A stretch of DNA of 64,000 nt, taken from contig NZ_LT732525.1 in assembly GCF_900155545.1 (NCBI RefSeq), positions 867,989-931,988 of the forward strand. The letters run 5' to 3'. Positions within the stretch are counted from its first letter, which is position 1. Each line of letters starts with the position of its first letter. Positions 15,373 to 32,889 of this stretch are shown here, piece after piece. The DNA is from Clostridium sp. Marseille-P2415. GTDB lineage: Bacteria > Bacillota > Clostridia > Lachnospirales > Lachnospiraceae. Made by a program: the position numbers and the translations under genes. The notes under the pieces were generated by a model. It did not search any database. It had not been told where the DNA came from and was given only the letters and a program-made list of their open reading frames with translations.

Positions 15373-16293
15373 TTATTTTCCTAATAGCTCGCGTTCAATT
15401 CGTTCTCTGGCCTCCGGTGCCTGTTTTTCCATCTTCTCCGGAAAACCAAACATGGAAACGCAGGCGATATTGTCTCCTCCCGCTTTCGGAGCATTTTGAC
15501 CCAGCTGCTTCCTGGCAAAATTCATTTCACGAAGAGTTTTAAAAATACCGTCAAAATCCACCTCTCCTTCTCCCATGGCCAGATGCTGATGCACCGTTAC
15601 ATCCGCTGCTCCTCTTTTGTTAAGCCACGGCGGATTAACAATATACCTGCAGTCCATGGTCTGGTTAAATGTATCCGCAAACAGGACATGGGGTAATTCA
15701 TCTCCCGCATAGCGAAGCATGGAGGATACATCTCCTTTTCCCTTGTCATAGAAGAATCCGTGGGGAGCAGAGTACACATAACCAAGGTTCTTTGAGCGGA
15801 AAGATTTTACGAGATCGCAGGTCTCATCATTCAGCTCGCAGAAATCATAGGGATGGGACTGAATCTCCACACGCAGCCCTTCCCGCTCTATGATTGGAAG
15901 CAATTCTTCCATAGAGCGAAACCACATACCGTTGCAGATTTCCTCCTGGTTCGGATCTCCCGATAATTCTGTATTAATGACCCGGACTCCCATATCAACA
16001 GCGATCCGTATCATTCTCTTCCAGTTTTCCACGGCCATCTTCCGCTGCTCTTCCGTCGGTCCGGACCAGCGGTATACAACGATAAAGGAAGAAATCTCCA
16101 CCCCTGTTTCCCGCAGCGCCTGACGGTATTCCCGCTCACATTCTTCCGAAAATAAGGGATGCTTATAAAACGGATTAATCCTGGGATGAGGAGACTGTTC
16201 TATGTATTTATATCCCCAGTCAGCCACCTGATGTACCATACGATTGATATCCATTTGCTTTGCAAGCACGTCTACGTCAAATGCTATTTTCAA
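15373..16293 (-). CDS. iolH: IolH-like sugar phosphate isomerase/epimerase
   Basis: A TIM-barrel (AP-endonuclease 2 fold) protein of about 306 residues. The sequence follows IolH of inositol operons: KIAFDVDV start, SSFIVVYRWSGPTEEQR, MDCRYIVNPPW and VHQHLAMGEGEVDFDGIF. The start is TTG 16293 (giving MKIAFDVD) with GGAGG 9 nt upstream; a TTG two codons earlier is too close to the ribosome site. Last gene of the inositol-type operon, 34 bp after iolE. The exact reaction of IolH is not settled. Confidence 0.8.
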   Translation of the reverse strand: MKIAFDVDVLAKQMDINRMVHQVADWGYKYIEQSPHPRINPFYKHPLFSEECEREYRQALRETGVEISSFIVVYRWSGPTEEQRKMAVENWKRMIRIAVDMGVRVINTELSGDPNQEEICNGMWFRSMEELLPIIEREGLRVEIQSHPYDFCELNDETCDLVKSFRSKNLGYVYSAPHGFFYDKGKGDVSSMLRYAGDELPHVLFADTFNQTMDCRYIVNPPWLNKRGAADVTVHQHLAMGEGEVDFDGIFKTLREMNFARKQLGQNAPKAGGDNIACVSMFGFPEKMEKQAPEARERIERELLGK

Positions 16294-16327
16294 AACCAAC
16301 CACCTCCTGGCTTCCTTTATACTTCAT

Positions 16328-17224
16328 TTAGAGTCCTGTTTTTTCGGCAATATACTTTCTTGCCTTGATTGCGTACTCCAGCGGATTGGCAACGGCCGGA
16401 TCCTGTTCCGCTTCCACCACTACATATCCTTCATAATCCGCTTCTTCCAGGACACGGAAAATCGGTTCAAAATCCACATCTCCATCACCGGGCACCGTAA
16501 AGACTCCCTCTCTGACACCCCGTAAGAAACTCCATCTTTCTTTTGCTGATTTTTCCACCATTTTCTTTCGGATATCTTTTAAATGCACATGTCTTACACG
16601 GTCAGCATATTTTTTTAATACCCTTACCGGATCCACACCGGCAAAAGATAAGTGACCGCTGTCAAAGAGCAGGGATACGAATTCGGGATTTACTTCCTGC
16701 ATAAAACGGTCAATTTCCTCTTCCGTCTGCACGACAGTCCCCATATGATGATGAAAGGTAAGGGTCATGCCCTTATCTTTTGCTGCTTTTCCCAGCTTGT
16801 TAAGGCCCTGGGCCAGCAGCTTCCACTCCTTCTCACTCATCACGTATTTGCCTTCCCATACAGGCTGGTTCAAATTGCCTTGAATGCTATAGCTTTGCTC
16901 GGACACTCCGATCACTTTTGCTCCCATTGCTTTCAAAAAATCAATTTGCCGGATAAATTCTTTTTCCGTTTCTTCAAATGGCTTTGAAATCAGAAAGGAA
17001 GAAAACCAGCAATTGCATATCCGGATCCCGCGCAAATCCAGGGCTTTTTTTAAGATGCTTACATCAGCCGGATATTTTCCGCCTATCTCCGATCCTGTAA
17101 ATCCGGCAAGAGCCATTTCACTGACGCATTGCTCGAAGGTATTTTCCTTTCCCAGATCCGGCATATCATCATTGGTCCATGCAATTGGAGCAATCCCCAG
17201 TTTTACTTTATTCTTATTTAACAT
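16328..17224 (-). CDS. iolE: myo-Inosose-2 dehydratase
   Basis: TIM-barrel enzyme that dehydrates 2-keto-myo-inositol to the diketone. The opening [18 protein letters not shown] and [17 protein letters not shown] are hallmark IolE sequences, followed by FHHHMGTVV and [12 protein letters not shown] with the metal-binding His and Asp residues. The start 17224 ([10 protein letters not shown]) lies in AAGGTGAAGAGGATG and overlaps the end of the transporter-kinase gene by 11 bp, so translation is coupled. About 298 residues, the usual size. Confidence 0.92.
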
Positions 17225-19316
17225 CCTCTTCACCTTCTTTTTCCTTTTCTCCAATATAGGATAATATCATTTGTACTGCACCATCAACTCCGGTCTTGGA
17301 TACATTGATAACCAGATCATAGTTTTCCGGGTCATGCCGGTCCATTCCCGTGAACCTGTGGTAATACTCATTTCTCTGCTCATCTCTTTTTTTCAGCTCT
17401 TCCAGGCTCTGTCCCTGATAGTACTCTTTTCCTTCCTGCTTTCTGTATTCATCATCGGCATAAATAAAGAAGGAATACGTATGAGGCATATCAGATAACA
17501 CGAAATTAGCACATCTCCCAAGGAACACTCCCGGACATTTCTGCGCAATGCTTAATATCAGCTGACTTTGCTTTTCAAAAATTTCCAGATCGCTGTAATC
17601 CTTGGCTGCGCCCGAAACGGAATAAGAATATGGAGAAAATGTCACCTTCTCATTCATACCGTCATAGTTAAGATACTTTTCCACCTCTTCCAGATTGGCC
17701 GTTTCCATTCCTAGCTTTTCTGCCATCAGACAAATAATCTGACGGTCATATACCCGGCAGCCCAAAGCCTTGGCAGTTTCTTCCGCAACCCTTCTTCCGC
17801 TGCTTCCATAGAGCCGGCCTATGGCGACATTAACACGGTTACTGTTTCTTAAGAAAGCTTCCTTTTCCGGTCCATTCTCAGGAACCGTTTTTCCTTCTCT
17901 TGCCACCAGCTCCCGCATCATCCTGTCATATACCTTATCCAGCTTGTAGCAGGCTGCAATAAAAAACATGATGATCCAGATTGCGATCGGAACATATAAA
18001 TAAAATCCTTTAATCACAGAAACCGCTGCCACGGTTTGTTCGGCTGCAGTTGCTTTTATTCCATCAAAGGCAGCCATTGAGAGAACCGCTCCCATGATCG
18101 CTGAGGTAAGTCCGCTGCCTGCCTTCTGTCCCATGCTCATAGAAGAAAACATCAGGCCTTCTACCCGGATTCCTGTCTTCCAGTGGCCATACTCAATCGC
18201 ATCACTTGGCAAAGAATACTGCACACCGTAAAAAGGCGCGATTCCAAGTCCTCTCATGATACAGGTCACCACCCCCAGGGGAATGCTCGTAATATTAAAA
18301 AGAAACAGGAACTGACCGGCAATTCCAAGCAGACAGCCCGCACAGATTAAATTTCTTTTTCCAAACCTCGGCAATGCCTTAGGCAAAAGAGCGATTCCGA
18401 TAATCGTAGCTACCTTTTCAGATGCGGAAAGAGGCATCACCAGATCCACATCATTTAATACATATTGGCAGTAATAGGTCAAATCCGTACCGATAATAAT
18501 CTGATATGCCGTATAGAAAATCATTAATCCCAATGCAATTAAAAAATACCGGTTCGTTACCGTCGCCTTAAATGCGGTTAAAAACGGAATATCCGACTTT
18601 TCCTTTCTTTCCTTCTTATCCGCCTGAACCCGCTCCGTACAGGTAACATACGTATTAATCAGTACAAAAACAGAGATTACCGCGTACACTGCCGTTACAA
18701 GGATCCACGCCATCTGCTTGTTTCCCGTTTTCTCAGCCACCAGATTAATAAGCGGCAGGGTAAACGCCGTAATAATCATACTCGCCGTAATAGAAAGCAC
18801 CATTCTGATATTACAGATTATATCCCGCTCTCTTCTGTCCCGGCTCATCAGCGAACCCAGAGCATGAAACGGCTGACTGATCGCCGTATAGACCACTGTA
18901 TTCATAATGTTATATGTAACAAAAGCATAGACCGCCTTGCCCATATCCCCTATAGCCGGCATCGTAAACAAAAGGATCGCCGCCAGCGCATAGGGAATTG
19001 CCAGGCGCAGGATCCAGATTCTGGCTTTCCCGTATTTTGAATGAGTTCTGTCAATGACAGTCCCCATCAACACATCCGAGAACCCGTCAAACACACGGGA
19101 TACAAGCATGATCATTCCCACTGTGCCAACAGAAATACCGGCTACATTTGTGTAGAAATAAATCAGGAGTGTTGTTGTCATTGTATACATTAATGTCAGT
19201 GCCGGATCCCCGAAACAATACGCAAGCTTTTCCGGTACCGGAACCTGAATGAACTCATTCATATCTTTATTCTTCTGTTTGAAATTCAGAATCTCTGCTA
19301 TTGTGCCCCTTATCAA
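17214..19316 (-). CDS. GPH-family sugar/polyol transporter fused to a cytidylate-kinase-like domain
   Basis: A single 700-residue frame. Residues about 20-465 form a twelve-helix GPH (glycoside-pentoside-hexuronide) symporter, with [33 protein letters not shown] and [17 protein letters not shown]. Residues about 494-685 match the cytidylate-kinase-like family (Cytidylate_kin2): a P-loop region [29 protein letters not shown], then [30 protein letters not shown] and [19 protein letters not shown] linker of about 25 polar residues joins them. No frameshift is visible. The best start is TTG 19316 with AAGGAGG 6 nt before; ATG 19262 is an alternative with a weak site. It lies between iolI and iolE and is presumably the inositol importer; the role of the kinase part is unknown. 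Confidence 0.88.
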
Positions 19317-19381
19317 AAAAAGCCTCCTTCCACCGCTCATAAAGAACGTTATACCTTCTGTTTAAAATATTCCTTCTTCTG

Positions 19382-20215
19382 TCACCCGAAATATTTTTTA
19401 ACAAATTCCCTGGTCACCTGAGCTGCTTTTTTCACATTTTCTTCATGAGAAAGCTTATAGTACTCAGGACGGAATTCTTCAATCGTACATACGCCGTCAA
19501 AACCGATCTTCCTTAGTGCTGCTGCGATCCCCCCATGATCAACAACGCCCTCTCCCGGCCATAATCTCTTATCATCCCCGCAGGAACCTAACGGAAGGTC
19601 TTCACAGTCATTCAAGTGATATGCAAAAATTTTCTTTCCGTCAGCTTTTTCCAAATCTTCTAATCTGGAACACATTTCATGGAAATGGAATGTATCCACC
19701 GTTACTCCTACATTGTCACGGTTAACCGCTTTTACAACATCATAGGCCGTTCCGAACTGGTTGATCGAGCAATTAGGCGCACCGCAGAATTCAAGGGATA
19801 TCTTCATATCCGATCCCACTTTATCTGCCAGATACTGCAGCCTGGCCACTGCCTCAGCCTTGATCTCCGGCACTGTTTTGTTTTTGACATCAAAAGACGG
19901 GACCGTGATAAGCATTTTCATTCCGATCGCCTTAGATACTTCCATGATAAAATCCACTTCATCATCGATTTCCTTTTCCCCTGCCTTATCCCTTTGATTA
20001 AAAAAGATAAGGGTGTTGTATGCCCAGGGTTTTAAGTGATGATTTTTAAACCAGCCGGAAAGCTCTTCCAGGGAATGTTCCTTTAAGTAATCCCTGATGC
20101 AGTCAAAACGGATTTCTATGTAATCAAACCCATACTTCTCACACATTTCAAGATCTGCAATGAGAGACTGACCTTTACATTCCAATGCTGTCGCTTCGTT
20201 AAATCCAATTTTCAT
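19382..20215 (-). CDS. iolI: 2-Keto-myo-inositol isomerase
   Basis: TIM-barrel isomerase of 277 residues that interconverts 2-keto-myo-inositol and 1-keto-D-chiro-inositol. It tracks the Bacillus subtilis IolI sequence along its length: KIGFNEATALE, CEKYGFDYIEIR, LEFCGAPNCSINQFGTAYD, VDTFHFHEMCSRLEDLEKAD, then LWPGEGVVDHG and FRPEYYKLS. ATG 20215 follows GGAGG; a codon-5 upstream ATG lies before the site. The metal ligands Glu, Asp, His and Glu are in place. Second gene of the operon. Confidence 0.92.
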   Translation of the reverse strand: MKIGFNEATALECKGQSLIADLEMCEKYGFDYIEIRFDCIRDYLKEHSLEELSGWFKNHHLKPWAYNTLIFFNQRDKAGEKEIDDEVDFIMEVSKAIGMKMLITVPSFDVKNKTVPEIKAEAVARLQYLADKVGSDMKISLEFCGAPNCSINQFGTAYDVVKAVNRDNVGVTVDTFHFHEMCSRLEDLEKADGKKIFAYHLNDCEDLPLGSCGDDKRLWPGEGVVDHGGIAAALRKIGFDGVCTIEEFRPEYYKLSHEENVKKAAQVTREFVKKYFG

Positions 20216-20247
20216 ATTTTTTTCCTCCATTTTAACATCATTGTTTT

Positions 20248-21252
20248 TTATTTATAAAAATCCGGTTTTTCTACTTCTGTCACAACAGGTTCTATTCCGC
20301 CTGTCTCCTGTGCCTTTACCAGCGCATCCGCTGTTACGGCTGCAAGATAACCATCCCATGCGGTAGGACCTGTAATAATCCCCTTAGAAGCGCTGTCAAC
20401 CCAGTCCTGCACTTCCTCGTCGTAGGCATCTTCAAATCTTACAAAGCAATCGGTATCAATGGTGGTGGACAGCTTTGCATCCTTACGGATAACCGGATAA
20501 TTCGGAACTGCCATTTGAATCGCTCCGTCTTCACACACCGCTTCACAGTTAATGTCATACCCGAACTTGCAGTTCACAAACACCTCAACATCAATGCAAA
20601 CTCCTTTTTTGGTGCGCATCAGCATAATCTGCGGATCATTCAATTTGCTGTGGGAATATTTCGTCACTCTCGGCATGATAACCTGAACGGATTCATATTC
20701 ATCATCTACCAGCCAGTGAAGCACATCAATTTCATGAATGGCGGTATCATGAACTGCCATGGGAGTGGTATAACCGGTTCCCACTTCCGGATTCCGGTGT
20801 GTGCAGTGCAGCATCAGCGGCTCCCCGTACTCCCCCGACTGAAGCGCTGCCTTTACCTGACGGTAACCTCTGTCATAACGTCTCATGAATCCAAGCTGGA
20901 TCAGATGCTTTCCGGAAGCCTCCTCTGCCTTTACTACCTTTAAACAGTCCTCCGCCGTTGTACATAACGGCTTCTCACAAAATACTCTTTTCCCTGCCTC
21001 AATCGCCATAAGAAGGTGCTCTATATGAGCAAACCCCGGAGATACGATAAATACTGCGTCTACTTCCGGAGCGTTGATCAAATCTTTCCCCTCCTTATAA
21101 ATTTTAGCTCCGCATAAAGCTGCCGCAGCTTTTGCATTTTCCCCGGATACGTCCGTAACTGCCACAACTTCCGCTCCCTGGATTTTGTTTGTTAACCTCT
21201 TAATGTGGTCGCGCCCCATTCCGCCGCATCCGATCATACCTACTCTTAACAT
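20248..21252 (-). CDS. iolG: Inositol 2-dehydrogenase (Gfo/Idh/MocA family)
   Basis: NAD-dependent dehydrogenase of 334 residues that oxidises myo-inositol to 2-keto-myo-inositol. A Rossmann motif GMIGCGGMGRDH is at the N-terminus. VFCEKPL gives the catalytic Lys94, and D169-TAI-H173 matches the Asp/His pair of IolG, followed by EIDVLHWLV. ATG 21252 follows GGAGG. It is the first gene of the operon, downstream of a promoter whose -35 region is covered by an operator. Activity on scyllo- or chiro-inositol cannot be excluded. Confidence 0.88.
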   Translation of the reverse strand: MLRVGMIGCGGMGRDHIKRLTNKIQGAEVVAVTDVSGENAKAAAALCGAKIYKEGKDLINAPEVDAVFIVSPGFAHIEHLLMAIEAGKRVFCEKPLCTTAEDCLKVVKAEEASGKHLIQLGFMRRYDRGYRQVKAALQSGEYGEPLMLHCTHRNPEVGTGYTTPMAVHDTAIHEIDVLHWLVDDEYESVQVIMPRVTKYSHSKLNDPQIMLMRTKKGVCIDVEVFVNCKFGYDINCEAVCEDGAIQMAVPNYPVIRKDAKLSTTIDTDCFVRFEDAYDEEVQDWVDSASKGIITGPTAWDGYLAAVTADALVKAQETGGIEPVVTEVEKPDFYK

Positions 21253-21562: not shown

Positions 21563-22591
21563 CTATATATTATATTTTGTTTTTATGACAATGTCCGTAT
21601 ACTGCAGTTCCTTTTCGGGCTTAATGCCTTCAAATAACAGCCTGTATAAGATCATTGTCGGTTCAAACCCCTGCGCAAAGGGATCCTGTCCTATGAGAAA
21701 GTTAATGCTCCCATTTTCAAGATAAGGAAGATTCTCCTTTACCAGGTCATTTGCCACCACTTTTATTTTCAGATTTAACTTCTTCTTCCGGAGACACTCA
21801 CAAACGCCCTTCTCTCCATGCCCGGTAATATATACTCCTTTCAAATCACAATGATTCTCCAGAATTTCTTCCATGATTTTTTCTGCGACCCAGTCATCAT
21901 CATAAGTATACCTTGGCTCCAGTACTTCTATTTCAGGAAATTTATCTTTCATTTCCCCTGCAAATCCCGCCAAACGGTTATTTAAAGCTTTATTGTTCTC
22001 ATTCCCCGAAAGAATGCACACTTTCCCCGATTCCCCGACAATCTCCCCCAGAAGGCCGGCTGCCGCCCGTCCGCTTTGTATCGCATCCTGCCCCACAAAA
22101 CAGATTCTTTTTGTATCTTCCAGATCTGCGTTAAAGGTTACAATAGGGATTCCATATTCCTGGACAAACTTGTCAATGGTCCTTCTAAGCAACTGGTCAT
22201 CCGAAGGCATCAGAGCAATTGCATGAAACTCCTTTTTTCGGAGCTTCTCCATAATGTTTATCACCCTGCCCGCATCAATTCCTTTTATTTTATGGATTTC
22301 CAACGTTCCCCCAAGGCCCTCCACCTCGGTTTTGGCCACCTCAATCCCCTTTATTACCCCTTTCATAAAAGGAGTTTCAGCCGATTGCGCAATGACAGCG
22401 ATCTTCAGTCCCTTTTTTGCCATAGCCATAGCTCTTCCTGCTTTGTTCGGCTGGTACCCCATCTGTCTTGCGATCTCCCGGATATTCTCCGCCACTTCCG
22501 GACGGATCCTGCCTCTGTTATTTAAAGCTCTGTCTACGGTTCCTCTCGAAACCCCTGCTTTTTCTGCAATCTGCTGTAACGTTACGGCCAT
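21563..22591 (-). CDS. LacI-family transcriptional regulator of the iol operon
   Basis: A 342-residue repressor. The start 22591 (MAVTLQQIAEKAG) follows AAGGAG by 9 nt; the longer frame reads through the upstream gene's tail. Residues 3-50 are the LacI helix-turn-helix and hinge (VTLQQIAEKAGVSRGTVDRA, QMGYQPNKAGRAMA). The rest is a periplasmic-binding-protein-like sugar domain of the RbsB type. It is upstream of iolG on the same strand, with two operators in between, so inositol-responsive control of the operon is the natural inference. Confidence 0.9.
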   Translation of the reverse strand: MAVTLQQIAEKAGVSRGTVDRALNNRGRIRPEVAENIREIARQMGYQPNKAGRAMAMAKKGLKIAVIAQSAETPFMKGVIKGIEVAKTEVEGLGGTLEIHKIKGIDAGRVINIMEKLRKKEFHAIALMPSDDQLLRRTIDKFVQEYGIPIVTFNADLEDTKRICFVGQDAIQSGRAAAGLLGEIVGESGKVCILSGNENNKALNNRLAGFAGEMKDKFPEIEVLEPRYTYDDDWVAEKIMEEILENHCDLKGVYITGHGEKGVCECLRKKKLNLKIKVVANDLVKENLPYLENGSINFLIGQDPFAQGFEPTMILYRLLFEGIKPEKELQYTDIVIKTKYNI

Positions 22592-22662
22592 TTTCACTTT
22601 CTCCTTTTCATTCCCATGTAATTCATTATACATGAAAATTTTATCCCGTGCAACGCTTCCGG

Positions 22663-24012
22663 TTATTCCGGAAAGGTCACCTCTTTCATTAAAAATATCA
22701 GAGCTGTAATATTGGGAATTGCCATCAGCCCATTCCAGATATCGGAAAGCTCCCATACAGTCTCCAGCTTTGCAAGACAGCCAAGGAACACGGCTCCCAG
22801 GTAAAGGAAGGTATACACCTTTCCTCTCAGAATCCGCTGCAAGAGGGAAAGGGCGTTCCGCTTCTTTAAACTCTCCGCCAGGTACACGGCCGCCTGACGA
22901 CCCAGATAGTACCAGGCAATGATGGTTGCAAAGGCAAAAACCAGCATGGCGCCCGATACCACAAACTGTCCAAGAGCGCCTAAGCGCCTGGAAAAGCAGT
23001 AGGCAGTCAGAGCTGCCCCATCATAGCCGGAACCGGCCGCATCCCCTTCCGTCATGCACAGGATCACAAACGCAGTCATGGTACAGATTAAAATGGTATC
23101 GAAAAACACCTCAAACATGGCCCACATTCCCTGCTTTTCCGGTGTGGTATCCTCTGCGGCACCATGCAGAACTGCCATGCTCCCAAGTCCTGCTTCATGG
23201 GAAAACACGCCCCGGGACACGCCATATTGCAGGCTTCTGCTGATTCCGTACCCGGCTGCTCCGGAAAAGACGGATACCGGCCGGAAGGCATCCTGAAAAA
23301 TGCATTGAAAAATATACGGGATCCTATCATAACAGGACATAATGACAACCATGGAGAACAGCATATAAATGCCTGCCGACAGAGGAATCAGCCGTTCGGA
23401 AACAAACGCGATCCTTCCGATTCCTCCCAGTACAACCAGAAATACGATTCCCGTTAACAGGACACCGATGGGAACAGACGGGAGGCCAAAGGTATATTCC
23501 AAAGTTTCTGCAATAGAATTGGACTGGACCATGCTCCCCATTCCAAGAGAAACCATAATACAAAAAAAGCTGTACAACATGCCAAGTCCGGGCAGCTTAA
23601 GCCCATGCTCCAAATATACCATGGGACCGCAGATCCAGGCTCCGTTTTTATCCCGGTAACGGTAGCGGATCCCGAGCATGGTCTCCGCATAGCCTGTCAT
23701 CATACCGATCACGGCGGATACCCACATCCAGAATATGGCTCCCGGCCCGCCGGCTGTCAGCGCCGTGGCAACTCCGACGATATTTCCGGTCCCAATGGTG
23801 GCTGCCAGAGCCGTGCATGCGGTTTGGAATTTCGTTACTTCCCCTTTGTCTTCTTCCGCATCCTCGTGTATGCTTCCAATGGTCTGCTTCCACCAGTAAG
23901 GCAGCTTCCTGACCTGAAAAAATCCTGATTTTACCGTATAAATGATCCCGATTCCAAGAAACAGAACCAAAAGCCACGGTCCCCAAACCAATTCATGTAT
24001 GCTATGTATCAT
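22663..24012 (-). CDS. Sodium:alanine/glycine symporter (AGCS family)
   Basis: A 449-residue transporter with about eleven helices. AGCS signatures are visible: GPWLLVLFLGIGIIYTVKSGF at the N-terminus (split motif), TACTALAATIGTGNIVGVATA (binding-site loop) and GVSRGVFSHEAGLGSMAVLH. AGGAG lies 8 nt before ATG 24012. It imports alanine or glycine with sodium. Divergent from the 24161 gene; not obviously part of the inositol operon though the LacI gene starts 72 bp after it. Confidence 0.92.
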   Translation of the reverse strand: MIHSIHELVWGPWLLVLFLGIGIIYTVKSGFFQVRKLPYWWKQTIGSIHEDAEEDKGEVTKFQTACTALAATIGTGNIVGVATALTAGGPGAIFWMWVSAVIGMMTGYAETMLGIRYRYRDKNGAWICGPMVYLEHGLKLPGLGMLYSFFCIMVSLGMGSMVQSNSIAETLEYTFGLPSVPIGVLLTGIVFLVVLGGIGRIAFVSERLIPLSAGIYMLFSMVVIMSCYDRIPYIFQCIFQDAFRPVSVFSGAAGYGISRSLQYGVSRGVFSHEAGLGSMAVLHGAAEDTTPEKQGMWAMFEVFFDTILICTMTAFVILCMTEGDAAGSGYDGAALTAYCFSRRLGALGQFVVSGAMLVFAFATIIAWYYLGRQAAVYLAESLKKRNALSLLQRILRGKVYTFLYLGAVFLGCLAKLETVWELSDIWNGLMAIPNITALIFLMKEVTFPE

Positions 24013-28864: not shown

Positions 28865-30205
28865 TTACAGGCTTAATGCCTCTTTTATGGTCTTTGCCAT
28901 ATAGTCAATCATATCATCGGTCATTCCGGGATATACGCCCACCCAGAAGGTATCCTCCATGATCCGGTTGGTATTGATTAACTCTCCTGCGATCCGATAG
29001 CCTTCTCCTGATTCTCTCATCTGGTCAAAGCAGGGGTGCTTGGTCAAATTTCCCGCAAACAGCATTCTTGTCTGAACCCCTTTGGATTCCACATACTGCA
29101 CGATCCGGTTCCTGTCCACGCCCTCTCTGCAGGTTATCAGGAAGCCAAACCAGCTCGGTCTGGAATTCGGACAGGCTTCCGGCAGAATCAGCTTATCGGA
29201 AGCCTCTTCCAGGGCTTTGTGGAGCCGGTCGAAATTATGCCGCCTGCGTTCCACAAAGGACGGGAATTTCTCCAGCTGGGCACAGCCTATGGCAGCCTGC
29301 ATGTCGGTCGCTTTTAAATTATAACCGAAATGGGAATAAACATATTTGTGATCATAACCCAGCGGCAGTTCTCCGTACTGCCGGTCGAAACGGTGTCCGC
29401 ACAGGTTATCACGCCCGGAAGGACAGACACAGTCCCTTCCCCAGTCACGGAAGGATCGGATGATTTTATTCAGCAGCGGATTATCGGTATAGACCGCTCC
29501 GCCCTCTCCCATGGTCATATGATGGGGAGGATAGAAGCTGGATGTACCGATGTCACCGATGGTGCCGGAAAAACGCTCTTCTCCATCAATGGTGTATTTT
29601 GTTCCCAGAGCATCACAGTTATCTTCCACCAGCCACAATCCATGCTTCCGGCAAAATGCCTTAACTGCAGCTAAGTCAAACGGATTCCCCAGGGTATGGG
29701 CGATCATGACCGCTTTCGTCTTTTCAGATAACGCCTTCTCCAGCATGGTCACATCAATGTTATACTGGGGAATGGTCACATCCACGAATACAGGAACTGC
29801 CCCAAACTGAATCAGAGGAGTTACCGTAGTCGGGAATCCGGCAGCCACCGTGATCACTTCATCCCCGCTCCTGATCCGGCGTTCCTTTAACAGCGGGGAA
29901 GTCAGGGTCATAAATGCCACCAGATTGGCAGATGACCCGGAATTCACAAGGGAACAGAACCGGACCTTTAAATATTCTGCCAGCTTTTTTTCAAATTCAT
30001 CGGTATAGCGCCCGGAAGTAAGCCAGAACTCCAGGGAGCTGTCCACCAGGTTTACCATCTCCCGGTGATCGTATACCCGGGAAGCGTAAGGGATCCGGTC
30101 TCCCTCTTCAAATGGCTTTCTCTGATTGTGGTAAGTACTGCAATATTCTTTTACCAGCGCAAGAATCTCCTCCCGCGCCTCTTTTTCTGTCTTGTGTTCA
30201 AACAT
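28865..30205 (-). CDS. rfbH: CDP-6-deoxy-hexulose 3-dehydrase (RfbH/E1-type, PMP and 2Fe-2S)
   Basis: A 446-residue sugar aminotransferase-fold enzyme that removes the C3 hydroxyl of CDP-4-keto-6-deoxy-glucose. SSFYPPHHMTMGEGG shows His (228/229) where transaminases have the PLP lysine, the mark of E1 dehydratases. Candidate Fe-S cysteines are C197 (EDNCDALG), C259, C261 and C269 (DCVCPSGRDNLC), matching E1 of Yersinia. It follows rfbG by 24 bp. The partner reductase (E3, RfbI/AscD) that completes 3-deoxygenation is not in this window. Confidence 0.92.
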   Translation of the reverse strand: MFEHKTEKEAREEILALVKEYCSTYHNQRKPFEEGDRIPYASRVYDHREMVNLVDSSLEFWLTSGRYTDEFEKKLAEYLKVRFCSLVNSGSSANLVAFMTLTSPLLKERRIRSGDEVITVAAGFPTTVTPLIQFGAVPVFVDVTIPQYNIDVTMLEKALSEKTKAVMIAHTLGNPFDLAAVKAFCRKHGLWLVEDNCDALGTKYTIDGEERFSGTIGDIGTSSFYPPHHMTMGEGGAVYTDNPLLNKIIRSFRDWGRDCVCPSGRDNLCGHRFDRQYGELPLGYDHKYVYSHFGYNLKATDMQAAIGCAQLEKFPSFVERRRHNFDRLHKALEEASDKLILPEACPNSRPSWFGFLITCREGVDRNRIVQYVESKGVQTRMLFAGNLTKHPCFDQMRESGEGYRIAGELINTNRIMEDTFWVGVYPGMTDDMIDYMAKTIKEALSL

Positions 30206-30229
30206 TCTATTATTCCTCTCATACTCTTT

Positions 30230-31303
30230 TCAACTGAAAAATTCCCTGATCTGCTGATCCATGATATCCAACATATCCGCCCCAGCCAGATAGGCTCTGG
30301 TCCACTCCACGGTCTTCCAAACCGCATCCTTCACCCCATATCTGGGAGACCATTCAAAAACACGTTTGATCTTTGAGCAGTCCAGCTTTAAAAAGCCGGC
30401 CTCATGAGGGCCTCCTTCAAATTTGTCGATCCACTTGATTCCCTGCCCCCATGCTTCGCAGAATAAGTCCGCCAGCCTGCCGGTGGTGATACAGTCTCTG
30501 TCATCCGGACCCACATTATAGTATCCCTGGAAGTTTAAATCTTCATACTGCTTCATGGCGATTGTCATATATACGGCCAGAGGTTCCAGCACATGCTGGT
30601 ATGGCCTGGTAGAATGCGGATTTCTTACGATAATATCCTGCTTTGCCGATGCAGCCCGGATGCAGTCCGGGATGATCCGGTCGCCCGCAAAGTCTCCGCC
30701 GCCGATCACATTGCCTGCACGGGAAGTGGACACTGCCGCACATCCGTCGGCAAAAAAGGATTTGGCATAGCTGTGGGTCACCAGTTCGGAGCAGGACTTA
30801 CTGTTGGAATAGGGATCGTAGCCGTCCAACGGGTCACACTCCCGGTACCCATACTCCCATTCTTTATTTTCATACACCTTATCGGTAGTCACGTTCAAAA
30901 AGGACTTAACAGAGGGAGTCAGGCGCACGCATTCTAAAATGTTAACCGTTCCCATCACATTGGTCTCATAGGTATAAACCGGTTCCTTATAGGATTCCCG
31001 GACAATGGGCTGAGCCGCTAAGTGAAATACGATTTCAGGTTTGACCTTAAAAAACACTTCTTTTAAATGTCCCAGGTCCCGGATGTCCCCAATTATGGAA
31101 TCCATGGTATCCTCAAGTCCCGCTACACCGAACAGGCTGGGGTCCGTAGGAGGCATTAAGGAATAACCGGTCACCGATGCACCGGCACTAACGAGAATCC
31201 GGCTCAGCCAGGACCCCTTAAAACCTGTGTGCCCTGTAATAAGAACCTTCTTTCCCTTATAAAATCCGCAAAATTCATTCCATTTCACACTTGTCCAACT
31301 CAT
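30230..31303 (-). CDS. rfbG: CDP-glucose 4,6-dehydratase
   Basis: Short-chain dehydrogenase-type enzyme of 357 residues that makes CDP-4-keto-6-deoxyglucose. The NAD motif GHTGFKGSWL (24-33), FHLAAQPIVRESY, TTDKVYEN and the Y165-xxx-K169 catalytic pair (YDPYSNSKS) are all present. The start lies 4 bp after the rfbF stop. Second enzyme of the CDP-dideoxyhexose route in this operon. Confidence 0.93.
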   Translation of the reverse strand: MSWTSVKWNEFCGFYKGKKVLITGHTGFKGSWLSRILVSAGASVTGYSLMPPTDPSLFGVAGLEDTMDSIIGDIRDLGHLKEVFFKVKPEIVFHLAAQPIVRESYKEPVYTYETNVMGTVNILECVRLTPSVKSFLNVTTDKVYENKEWEYGYRECDPLDGYDPYSNSKSCSELVTHSYAKSFFADGCAAVSTSRAGNVIGGGDFAGDRIIPDCIRAASAKQDIIVRNPHSTRPYQHVLEPLAVYMTIAMKQYEDLNFQGYYNVGPDDRDCITTGRLADLFCEAWGQGIKWIDKFEGGPHEAGFLKLDCSKIKRVFEWSPRYGVKDAVWKTVEWTRAYLAGADMLDIMDQQIREFFS

Positions 31304-31307
31304 CCTG

Positions 31308-32084
31308 TTATTTCTCCCATATTTTCCAAGGTGCTTTGCCGGACTGCCATAAATCTTCCAGCTTCTTCATCTCCCTCTGAGTGTCCATACACTGCCAGAA
31401 ACCGGAGTGGTGGAAGCTCATAAGCTGCCCCTCCGCCGCCAGCCTCTGCAGCGGCTCCTTTTCCAACACCGTAGTATCGTCTTTTAAATAAGAAAAGACT
31501 TCCGGATTCATAACCATAAAGCCTCCGTTTATCAGACTGGCATCGGTTTCATCCTTCTCCCGGAAAGAACGTACCACATCGCTTTCATCAATATCCAGAA
31601 CGCCTTTTAACTGGGCAATATTCACTGTGGTCATGGTAGCGGTCTTTCCATGGCTCTGATGGAATTTTAAGAGTTCATTTAAATCCACGTCGCAGACACC
31701 GTCACCGTAAGTCAGCATAAAGGGTTCATCGCCGATATAAGGCTGGATGCGCCTGATACGTCCGCCTGTCATGGTATTTAACCCGGTATCCACCAAAGTC
31801 ACTTTCCAGGGCTCAGAATAATTGTTATGTACCTCCATCTTATTATTGGCAAGATCAAAGGTTACATCCGATGTATGAAGGAAATAATCCGCAAAAAATT
31901 CCTTAACCACATACTGTTTATAACCAAGACATATAACAAAATCATGAAAGCCGTATTGGGAGTAATATTTCATAATATGCCATAAGATTGGTTTTTCGCC
32001 GATCTCAATCATTGGCTTTGGCTTCAAATGGCTTTCCTCGCTGATCCTTGTCCCAAATCCTCCGGCTAATAATACTACTTTCAT
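31308..32084 (-). CDS. rfbF: Glucose-1-phosphate cytidylyltransferase
   Basis: A 258-residue nucleotidyltransferase that makes CDP-glucose. KVVLLAGGFGTRISEES with PKPMIEIG is the nucleotide-binding opening, LTYGDGVCDVD the metal-binding aspartate, and SFHHSGFWQCMDTQRE the typical C-terminal signature. The start 32084 follows AGGAGG by 8 nt; the longer version overlaps the glycosyltransferase gene. Confidence 0.93.
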   Translation of the reverse strand: MKVVLLAGGFGTRISEESHLKPKPMIEIGEKPILWHIMKYYSQYGFHDFVICLGYKQYVVKEFFADYFLHTSDVTFDLANNKMEVHNNYSEPWKVTLVDTGLNTMTGGRIRRIQPYIGDEPFMLTYGDGVCDVDLNELLKFHQSHGKTATMTTVNIAQLKGVLDIDESDVVRSFREKDETDASLINGGFMVMNPEVFSYLKDDTTVLEKEPLQRLAAEGQLMSFHHSGFWQCMDTQREMKKLEDLWQSGKAPWKIWEK

Positions 32085-32106
32085 TGTTTCATCCTCCTGC
32101 GTCTTT

Positions 32107-32889
32107 TTATTCATATTCTTTATAAGCCTTTCGGTAAAAATGCATGAGCACCTTCACAAACGGTCCCGGCCACATCTTTTTAAACATATCGGTTTCCTCT
32201 GTTACCCTGCTGTTGTCCCTGATACACGCCTTTGTGGCCGCCTCTTCATGGACCCGGTAATACAGGACCGGTTTCTCCACACAAATAAAACGCCCGGGCA
32301 GCCTGGAAAGTTTAAAAAGCGTATCCCAGTCCAGCGCAAACCGATAAGGGGAGGTAAAGAGCGGCTCCCCTAATCTTTCTTTATTATATGCGCACGCCGG
32401 ACAGCAGATGGAGTTACCAAACATCAGGACGCTTTTTTTAATCCAGGATAAATGGCTTAAATGACGGAAGCGAAGGGGCAGGCGCAGAAACCGTTTTACA
32501 AACTCTACTTTTTCAAAGCCTGCCGGTCTCTCCCCTTTGACGACGGTATATCCTCCTGTAAACAGCGTCATATCCGGGTACTTTTCATAGCATTCCAGAA
32601 GTTTTTTCACATAATCCTTCCGATATAAATCATCCTGATGGGCAATGGTGACAAAACGGGCATCGGCCATATAGTAGGCAAAATTCCAGTCGTCCCGGAT
32701 GCTGCTCTTTCCATGGCGTATAAATACGGGAATTCCGTATTTGTCCGCCAATTCTTCGATATAGGGGCTCGGAGTGGATGTGCATAATATAATATCCGAT
32801 TCCACACTCTGTCCCTTTAAAGAGCGGATACAGGCCTCCAGATATGGCGAGTCTTTGTATGCGCAGATTGCAAATGCATGTAGTTTCAT
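32107..32889 (-). CDS. Glycosyltransferase family 2-like protein
   Basis: A 260-residue GT-A fold protein. HAFAICAYKDSPYLEACIRS is the nucleotide-binding start and TIAHQDDLYRKDYV holds the DxD-type motif; FALDWDTLFKLSRL is like the ED(Y) acceptor region. AGAGG precedes ATG 32889. First gene of the operon, upstream of the CDP-sugar genes, so it probably transfers a sugar in the same surface polysaccharide. Confidence 0.87.
   Translation of the reverse strand: MKLHAFAICAYKDSPYLEACIRSLKGQSVESDIILCTSTPSPYIEELADKYGIPVFIRHGKSSIRDDWNFAYYMADARFVTIAHQDDLYRKDYVKKLLECYEKYPDMTLFTGGYTVVKGERPAGFEKVEFVKRFLRLPLRFRHLSHLSWIKKSVLMFGNSICCPACAYNKERLGEPLFTSPYRFALDWDTLFKLSRLPGRFICVEKPVLYYRVHEEAATKACIRDNSRVTEETDMFKKMWPGPFVKVLMHFYRKAYKEYE

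What the first reader, a model, noticed from the sequence alone, without database searches (positions are those of the whole stretch)
17214..19316. Inositol-operon transporter fused to a cytidylate-kinase-like domain
One uninterrupted 700-codon frame joins a complete GPH-type symporter to a complete P-loop domain of the cytidylate-kinase-like family. I know both families as separate proteins; a single chain would put a nucleotide-dependent kinase at the cytoplasmic mouth of a polyol importer. It could phosphorylate the imported substrate (group-translocation-like coupling), or gate the transporter by nucleotide level. The glycine-rich loop reads [10 protein letters not shown], intact enough to bind nucleotide. 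It is flanked by coupled iol genes, so the fusion is expressed in a defined pathway.
Basis: partly seen in the sequence, partly recalled or inferred. Interest (0 to 1): 0.75.

Follow-up and report, generated by a model that had tools for sequence, protein, structure and literature searches.

The report
Polyol transporter fused to kinase-like domain
A bacterium related to common gut species makes, as one protein, a probable sugar-alcohol importer with a kinase-like domain at its end; the fusion is real and conserved, and the same kind of domain turns up attached to several unrelated transporters, which points to a little-studied way of controlling transport.

Summary
The fusion is real. One minus-strand frame (17214-19316) joins a complete GPH/MFS_2 symporter to a complete Cytidylate_kin2 (PF13189) domain. 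Of 23 related loci from named genomes, 22 show it in frame; the other is cut by its contig end. 21 of 23 have iol-type genes within the held flanks. None of 24 other same-genus genomes gave a full-length match. The domain is under purifying selection (median dN/dS 0.107). The transporter tree fits one gain and one loss.

Phosphorylation of the substrate on entry is not supported: PF13189 has no classical Walker-A motif, the fused clade departs at several conserved positions, and iol genes including the kinase IolC lie elsewhere in the genome.

Unexpected: PF13189 is also fused C-terminally to MATE, NCS1, EamA and DUF6198 membrane proteins. Free-standing PF13189 genes have tight polytopic-membrane neighbours more often than background (24 of 71 against 19 of 302), but this fades with strict correction for relatedness.

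Best reading, inferred: a cytoplasmic ligand-sensing tail that regulates its transporter.

The parts
17214..19316 (-). Fusion gene: GPH/MFS_2 symporter plus Cytidylate_kin2 domain, 700 codons plus stop (708-aa frame if the ATG at 19340 is used)
17934..19220 (-). MFS_2/GPH symporter domain (residues 41-469 of the 708-aa frame)
   Evidence: Pfam PF13347 E 2.7e-80; TIGR00792 308.6 bits, cut-off 231.35
17835..17894 (-). Linker of variable length (about residues 483-502)
   Evidence: linker alignment of 18 fused genes
17295..17828 (-). Cytidylate_kin2 (PF13189) domain, residues 505-682
   Evidence: Pfam E 3e-37
17790..17819 (-). Glycine-rich loop [10 protein letters not shown] (residues 508-517); not a classical Walker A
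16328..17224 (-). IolE (myo-inosose-2 dehydratase); its likely ATG start overlaps the end of the fusion gene by 11 nt
   Evidence: TIGR04379 417.2 bits, cut-off 290; sequence
15373..16299 (-). Xylose-isomerase-like TIM-barrel gene (TIM3), same strand
   Evidence: PF01261 E 1.6e-37
19382..20230 (-). Xylose-isomerase-like TIM-barrel gene (TIM1), upstream of the fusion, same strand
   Evidence: PF01261 E 1.2e-35
20248..21252 (-). IolG-like Gfo/Idh/MocA dehydrogenase (464 bits to NF052679, below its cut-off of 540)
21563..22756 (-). LacI-type regulator with Peripla_BP_4 domain (true start probably nearer 22591)

Best explanation
The gene encodes a GPH symporter, probably for an inositol-type polyol, with a C-terminal PF13189 domain that most likely serves as a regulatory ligand-sensing module on the cytoplasmic side, not as a substrate kinase. 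Shown: one chain, the same architecture in 22 of 23 related named loci, purifying selection, and a transporter tree that fits one gain and one loss. Inferred: the domain binds a nucleotide or another phosphorylated ligand through its invariant arginines (R509, R609, R656) and glycine loop; ligand binding or a LID movement changes the contact with the transporter core and so tunes uptake to the cell's energy or metabolic state. PF13189 appears to be used in this way more than once, because it is fused to, or encoded tightly beside, several unrelated membrane transporters.
For: Domains and frame. Conservation: 22 of 23 loci in frame, 20 of them full length, 692-733 aa. Selection: domain dN/dS median 0.107, transporter 0.033, from the 37 of 153 pairs that were not saturated. 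Accessory character: unfused relatives G291 and G249 outside the fused clade and G227 nested in it without the domain, with no close copy elsewhere in G227 (best 31%). Same domain C-terminal to MatE (L133, L134, L135, L136, L144, L273, and the shortened frame L276), Transp_cyt_pur/NCS1 (L137), EamA (L274, L275) and DUF6198 (L138). Tight same-strand neighbours of 100 free-standing PF13189 genes: 24 of 71 have at least 6 hydrophobic segments, background 19 of 302; Pfam matches 8 of the 71 to MatE, 6 to CitMHS and 5 to BacA. Ordinary catalysis doubtful: no classical Walker A and changed conserved positions in the fused clade. IolC exists elsewhere.
Against: D653 and the arginines R609 and R656 are kept, so phosphotransfer cannot be excluded. 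The alignment to E. coli Cmk is weak (hhalign probability 19.6%); a one-residue shift would put position 516 (R in 20 and K in 3 of 23 fused domains) in the place of the Walker lysine. The E at position 636 is also read in the free-standing G291 gene, so that change may be older than the fusion. Neighbour enrichment holds with one representative per 50% identity cluster (36 clusters, median p 0.001, OR 6.7) but not at 45% (11 clusters, median p 0.27) or 40% (4 clusters, p 1), and the CitMHS and BacA cases each fall in one kinase clade. 76 of the 100 free-standing genes have no such membrane neighbour, including both own-genome copies in that set (L242, L265). The genome-contig scan used motifs of the fused clade, so its 23 loci cannot measure how often the domain is free.
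Confidence: 0.5

Rival explanations
1. Import-and-phosphorylate: the domain is an active kinase that phosphorylates the polyol as it emerges, trapping it.
For: PF13189 is named as a cytidylate-kinase-like family; R609, R656 and D653 are conserved in 23 of 23 fused domains; purifying selection.
Against: No classical Walker A; departures at conserved positions in the fused clade; neighbouring IolG/IolE-type enzymes act on free cyclitols (recalled); IolC is present elsewhere; in G291 an unfused relative of the transporter lies in the same kind of gene cluster; the domain is shared with MATE, NCS1 and EamA proteins.
Confidence: 0.12
2. Another enzyme: the domain is an active nucleotide, small-molecule or protein kinase placed at the membrane, and its substrate is not the transported polyol.
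For: Distant resemblance to CMP kinases; many copies per genome (7 PF13189 matches in the own genome, possibly including the true Cmk); tight neighbours of free-standing copies also include proteins matching RNase Y (5 of 71) and citrate synthase (4 of 71).
Against: The (d)CMP kinase model scores 23.9 against a cut-off of 102.1; the altered loop and conserved-position changes; no evident reason for a transporter tail.
Confidence: 0.18
3. Scaffold: the domain only holds the transporter beside downstream enzymes or dimerises it; ligand binding is vestigial.
For: Fixed departures at conserved positions; faster evolution than the transporter; end of the fusion overlaps or abuts the next gene in several genomes.
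Against: G512, G515, R509, R609 and R656 are kept in 23 of 23 fused domains, which a mere scaffold does not obviously need; the same domain sits on transporters of other families.
Confidence: 0.12
4. Passenger: the fusion is a near-neutral accident.
For: Probable loss in G227 (support 85/68).
Against: Kinase-part dN/dS 0.045-0.117 in the 12 closest pairs with a value and retention in 22 of 23 related loci (the scan favoured the fused clade).
Confidence: 0.04

Closest known systems
GPH symporters (PF13347, TIGR00792; MelB, glucuronide transporter, YagG)
   Same: Full-length match above the subfamily cut-off
   Different: The match ends near residue 480; the extra kinase-like tail is not part of the family model (that well-known members lack it is recalled)
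Cytidylate_kin2 family (PF13189; solved structures 3hdt 'putative kinase' and 3fdi 'uncharacterized protein')
   Same: Full-domain match, 128.9 bits; R509, G515, G608, R609, R656 conserved
   Different: Fused to a transporter; clade-specific states at positions 506, 514, 604, 606, 607, 612, 636, 654, 668, of which 604, 606, 607 and 636 are shared with the free-standing G291 gene
CMP kinase (Cmk; TIGR02173 model)
   Same: Weak match only
   Different: TIGR02173 far below cut-off; Walker-A lysine of E. coli Cmk aligns with an invariant glycine
Transporters with cytoplasmic regulatory tails (CBS, USP, RCK domains; recalled, not tested)
   Same: A soluble ligand-binding domain fused to the cytoplasmic end of unrelated transporters
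   Different: Here the tail is a kinase-like domain; no paper on such a case turned up in the searches made

Membership tests
GPH:cation symporter | TIGR00792 above its curated cut-off over the whole model | tested here: met
   308.6 bits against 231.35, model positions 1-435 of 437
GPH:cation symporter | Cation-coupled glycoside or polyol transport | not testable with these tools
   needs transport assays
Cytidylate_kin2 (PF13189) | Pfam gathering score over the full domain | tested here: met
   128.9 bits against 28, model positions 2-176 of 176
Classical P-loop NMP kinase | Walker A motif GxxxxGK[ST] | tested here: not met
   Cmk lysine aligns with glycine 515, G in 131 of 131 free-standing and 23 of 23 fused domains. 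The alignment is weak; with a one-residue shift an Arg (20) or Lys (3 of 23) at 516 would stand there, still without the motif's [ST]
(d)CMP kinase | TIGR02173 above its curated cut-off | tested here: not met
   23.9 bits against 102.1
Active kinase | Conserved basic residues of the putative LID region kept as in free-standing relatives | tested here: inconclusive
   R636 to E in 23 of 23, position 654 basic in only 1 of 23, W668 to R in 23 of 23, but R656 and D653 kept. The role of these positions is inferred from a weak sequence alignment to Cmk, not from a structure
Group translocation (import with phosphorylation) | Substrate phosphorylated during or at transport | not testable with these tools
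   needs biochemistry; indirect evidence is against
Inositol (iol) operon | Neighbouring genes above iol equivalog cut-offs | tested here: inconclusive
   IolE yes (417.2 against 290); IolG-like below both cut-offs (464 against 540; 201 against 355)

The most novel reading that the evidence does not exclude
PF13189 'cytidylate-kinase-like' proteins are, in part, a general class of transporter-control domains in Bacillota: a kinase-like fold without a classical Walker A, reused as a cytoplasmic sensor that is repeatedly fused to, or co-encoded with, unrelated transporters (fused: GPH, MATE, NCS1, EamA, DUF6198; neighbours: MATE, CitMHS, BacA), of which the window protein is the polyol-uptake version.
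Probability: 0.35. Interest if true: 0.8.

Novelty: new variant of a known kind. Interest (0 to 1): 0.6.

Why it matters
PF13189 is common in this bacterial family (310 of 397 genomes have a match at E up to 1e-28 to one free-standing member), and its two solved structures are named only 'putative kinase' and 'uncharacterized protein'. Repeated fusion to membrane proteins gives a concrete, testable clue to function and would add a kinase-like tail to the known regulatory domains of transporters. The fused importer occurs in Blautia, Dorea and Faecalicatena, known as gut genera (recalled), so it also bears on how polyol uptake is controlled there.

Tried and rejected
Rejected: assembly join or frameshift (22 of 23 other loci carry the frame). 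No sign of spread by mobile elements: 0 of 353 plasmid records with a match cover 80% of the query; one viral-contig scan with patterns from A2, both in the N-terminal part, gave no relative among 192 stretches. The phages collection was not searched. Rejected as fusions: the long frames L140 and L141 (N-terminal part not gene-like by eye). Not transporter fusions by eye: PF13189 proteins of 316-366 aa with a C-terminal extension (L278-L282), the 471-aa frame L277, and proteins of 339-356 aa with an N-terminal extension (L139, L289-L291).

Led nowhere: AlphaFold model and fold search (no model could be made), so no residue was placed in space. Paper searches found no study of PF13189 or of this fusion: 1 paper, listing only; 1, listing; 2 each, the same two, listing; 11, listing, none relevant by title; 0; the underscore term was read as 'cytidylatekin2'. 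One search (PDB codes) gave 20 papers, 15 listed, none about these structures by title. One search (inositol terms) gave 16, 10 listed; of these PMC8355322 and PMC12503163 were seen only as found passages, in which no kinase-fused transporter appears ('kinase' 0 times in the first, 'cytidylate' 0 times in the second).

Results against my reading: the neighbour enrichment is lost when kinases are clustered at 45% or 40% identity. Of the listed rows, the 30 best (loci L095-L124) and about ten of the last rows were not used in the neighbour count. L073 has the fusion and a LacI gene but no iol enzyme hit in its 10-kb flanks, and L084 shows none. The possible pre-fusion gene is seen in one genome only (G291), with three genes between, one on the other strand. 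A crude hydropathy scan found 9, not 12, segments in the window's transporter. In one search most frames of 293-366 aa were not inspected (5 were fetched).

Full report
WHAT IS THERE. On the minus strand, an open frame from TTG 19316 (GGAGG 6 nt upstream; an in-frame ATG lies at 19340) runs to TAA 17214 without an inner stop. Pfam finds a complete MFS_2/GPH symporter (residues 41-469, E 2.7e-80) and a complete Cytidylate_kin2 domain (PF13189; 505-682, E 3e-37), joined by a short linker of variable length. NCBIfam calls the first part a GPH symporter above cut-off; the (d)CMP-kinase model is far below its cut-off. The gene lies between IolG-like and TIM-barrel genes upstream and IolE and another TIM barrel downstream; the likely IolE start overlaps the fusion's stop by 11 nt.

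IS IT AN ARTEFACT. No. A scan of named genomes with the C-terminal domain of four fusions returned 23 loci (Blautia, Dorea, Faecalicatena orotica, Clostridium sp. and uncultured Lachnospiraceae or Clostridia). In 22 of 23 the kinase frame runs on in frame into the transporter (20 full length, 692-733 aa; L076 and L094 are cut by contig ends but still show it); L084 is cut too early to tell. 21 of 23 have at least one hit to the window's IolG-like, IolE or TIM-barrel genes in the flanks held (up to 10 kb); the exceptions are L084 and L073, which has a LacI gene only. The scan used two motifs of the fused clade, so it cannot say how often such kinases are free. With the whole protein as query, 4 of 397 family genomes (own included) and 1 of 25 same-genus genomes (the own) have a full-length match at E up to 1e-60. 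The kinase domains of the three unnamed family hits are identical to those of named loci (where identical rows were dropped: 27 rows gave 23 distinct), so I count about 24 species-level genomes in all, the window and L084 included.

HISTORY. In a tree of 49 transporter rows the 22 fused ones and one unfused (G227) form a clade (100/100). G291 and G249, unfused, lie just outside; G227 is nested inside with moderate support (85/68). The label needs two changes, which reads as one gain and one loss. G227 has no close kinase copy elsewhere (best 31%). G291 keeps a free-standing PF13189 gene (L286 14049-14648) 3.3 kb downstream of its unfused transporter, past IolE, TIM3 and one minus-strand gene. 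In a careful tree of 57 rows this gene groups with the 12 fused kinases used (split 99/97); it shares G604, F606, L607 and, in that alignment, E636 with them, while it has the family's usual T506, G514, D612, K654 and W668. This looks like the state before the fusion, but it is one genome only; the next best match among 397 family genomes is 43% identical and groups with other free-standing genes.

SELECTION AND ACTIVE SITE. Over 18 fused genes, 37 of 153 pairs were not saturated: median dN/dS 0.107 for the kinase part and 0.033 for the transporter (simple counting method, pairs not independent). The domain is constrained but evolves faster. In 162 distinct PF13189 domains (131 free-standing, 23 GPH-fused, 8 others), R509, G515 and G608 are invariant in the groups tabulated, R656 is kept in 131 of 131 free-standing and 23 of 23 fused domains (H in L139), and R609 in 129 of 131 and 23 of 23. 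The Walker-A lysine of E. coli Cmk aligns with glycine 515 in both alignments made, but the profile match is weak (hhalign probability 19.6%), and a one-residue shift would bring R or K 516 there. The GPH-fused clade departs further: R636 to E (23 of 23; R in 106 of 131 free-standing), W668 to R (23 of 23; W in 128), position 654 basic in 1 of 23 (128 of 131 free-standing), D612 to N (23 of 23; D in 111, N in 14), G514 to S (23 of 23; G in 114). What these positions do is inferred. The invariant arginines suggest that a phosphorylated ligand is still bound; the departures make ordinary catalysis doubtful.

THE WIDER PATTERN. A PF13189 search in 291 class genomes (list truncated; its 9 frames of 300 aa or more were fetched) and in 348 phylum genomes (89 rows at E up to 1e-30 by my count, of which 5, the window included, are transporter fusions; shorter long frames only sampled) showed more fusions, and one more came from a MATE-fusion search. 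Pfam confirms PF13189 C-terminal to MatE in L133, L134, L135, L136, L144 and L273 (and the shortened frame L276; the frame of L135 lacks the start of its MATE part), to Transp_cyt_pur (NCS1) in L137, to EamA in L274 and L275, and to DUF6198 in L138. L287 and L288 look like two more DUF6198 fusions (not scanned with Pfam) and group with L138. In the kinase trees the MATE fusions need two or three label changes, so more than one origin is likely but not forced. For 100 free-standing PF13189 genes taken from the list, 24 of the 71 tight same-strand neighbours (gap up to 60 nt, at least 150 aa) have six or more hydrophobic segments, against 19 of 302 other ORFs in the same loci (Fisher p 7e-9, OR 7.6; simple ORF calls and hydropathy). 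Among the 71, Pfam matches 8 to MatE, 6 to CitMHS and 5 to BacA. Relatedness inflates this: one representative per 50% identity cluster (36 clusters) gives median p 0.001 and OR 6.7; at 45% (11 clusters) p is 0.27 and at 40% (4 clusters) 1.

HOW IT MOST LIKELY WORKS. The unfused relatives and the probable loss suggest that the transporter can do without the tail, so the tail tunes and does not drive transport. A polyol-specific kinase does not explain why the domain sits on MATE, NCS1 and EamA proteins. The own genome has a second iol operon with IolG, IolE, IolD, IolC and an aldolase above cut-off (a 261-aa gene in it, perhaps IolB, had no match at E 1e-40), so the path already has its kinase, acting later; entry as a phosphate would not suit IolG and IolE (recalled biochemistry). 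I therefore favour a regulatory, ligand-sensing tail (0.5), with another enzymatic role (0.18), substrate phosphorylation (0.12) and a scaffold (0.12) as rivals. The cytoplasmic side of the C terminus is recalled from MelB; nothing here measured topology, binding or activity.

KNOWN OR NEW. Both domains are known families; two PF13189 structures exist without an assigned function. Full-text searches for the family name, the Pfam accession, and combinations with transporter or MATE terms found no description of these fusions (open-licence PMC papers only, seen as listings). I rate it a new variant of a known kind, a transporter with a probable regulatory tail, and not a categorically new system.

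Noticed in passing
L286 14049..14648: Free-standing PF13189 gene near the unfused related transporter in G291; groups with the fused kinases: a possible pre-fusion state (one genome).
   Followed up: yes
L133-L138, L144, L273-L276, L287, L288: PF13189 C-terminal to MATE, NCS1, EamA and DUF6198 membrane proteins in other Bacillota genomes (L287 and L288 by eye only).
   Followed up: partly
L238, L257, L260, L266, L267, L269: A clade of free-standing PF13189 genes sits 13-33 nt downstream of CitMHS/ArsB-type permease genes.
   Followed up: partly
L179, L188, L191, L193, L201: Another clade of PF13189 genes lies directly before genes that look like bacA/uppP (5 of 71 neighbours match BacA in Pfam), in two cases with a 4-nt overlap.
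   Followed up: partly
L212, L215, L222, L224, L225 and others: Five tight neighbours of PF13189 genes match RNase Y and four match citrate synthase in Pfam; which locus is which is by size and position only. Meaning unknown.
   Followed up: no
L278-L282: A separate 316-366 aa architecture: PF13189 followed by a conserved C-terminal region that Pfam does not name in the one member scanned (L282).
   Followed up: no
L139, L289, L290, L291: A 339-356 aa architecture with an N-terminal region of about 130 residues before PF13189; no Pfam match for that region in L139.
   Followed up: no
window 28865-32114: By eye, a CDP-sugar gene set (cytidylyltransferase-like, CDP-glucose dehydratase-like, aminotransferase-like); not tested.
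   Followed up: no
L283 (G000:C9:3210500-3228500): A second iol operon (IolG, IolE, IolD, IolC, aldolase above cut-off; IolB not identified) apart from the window cluster.
   Followed up: yes
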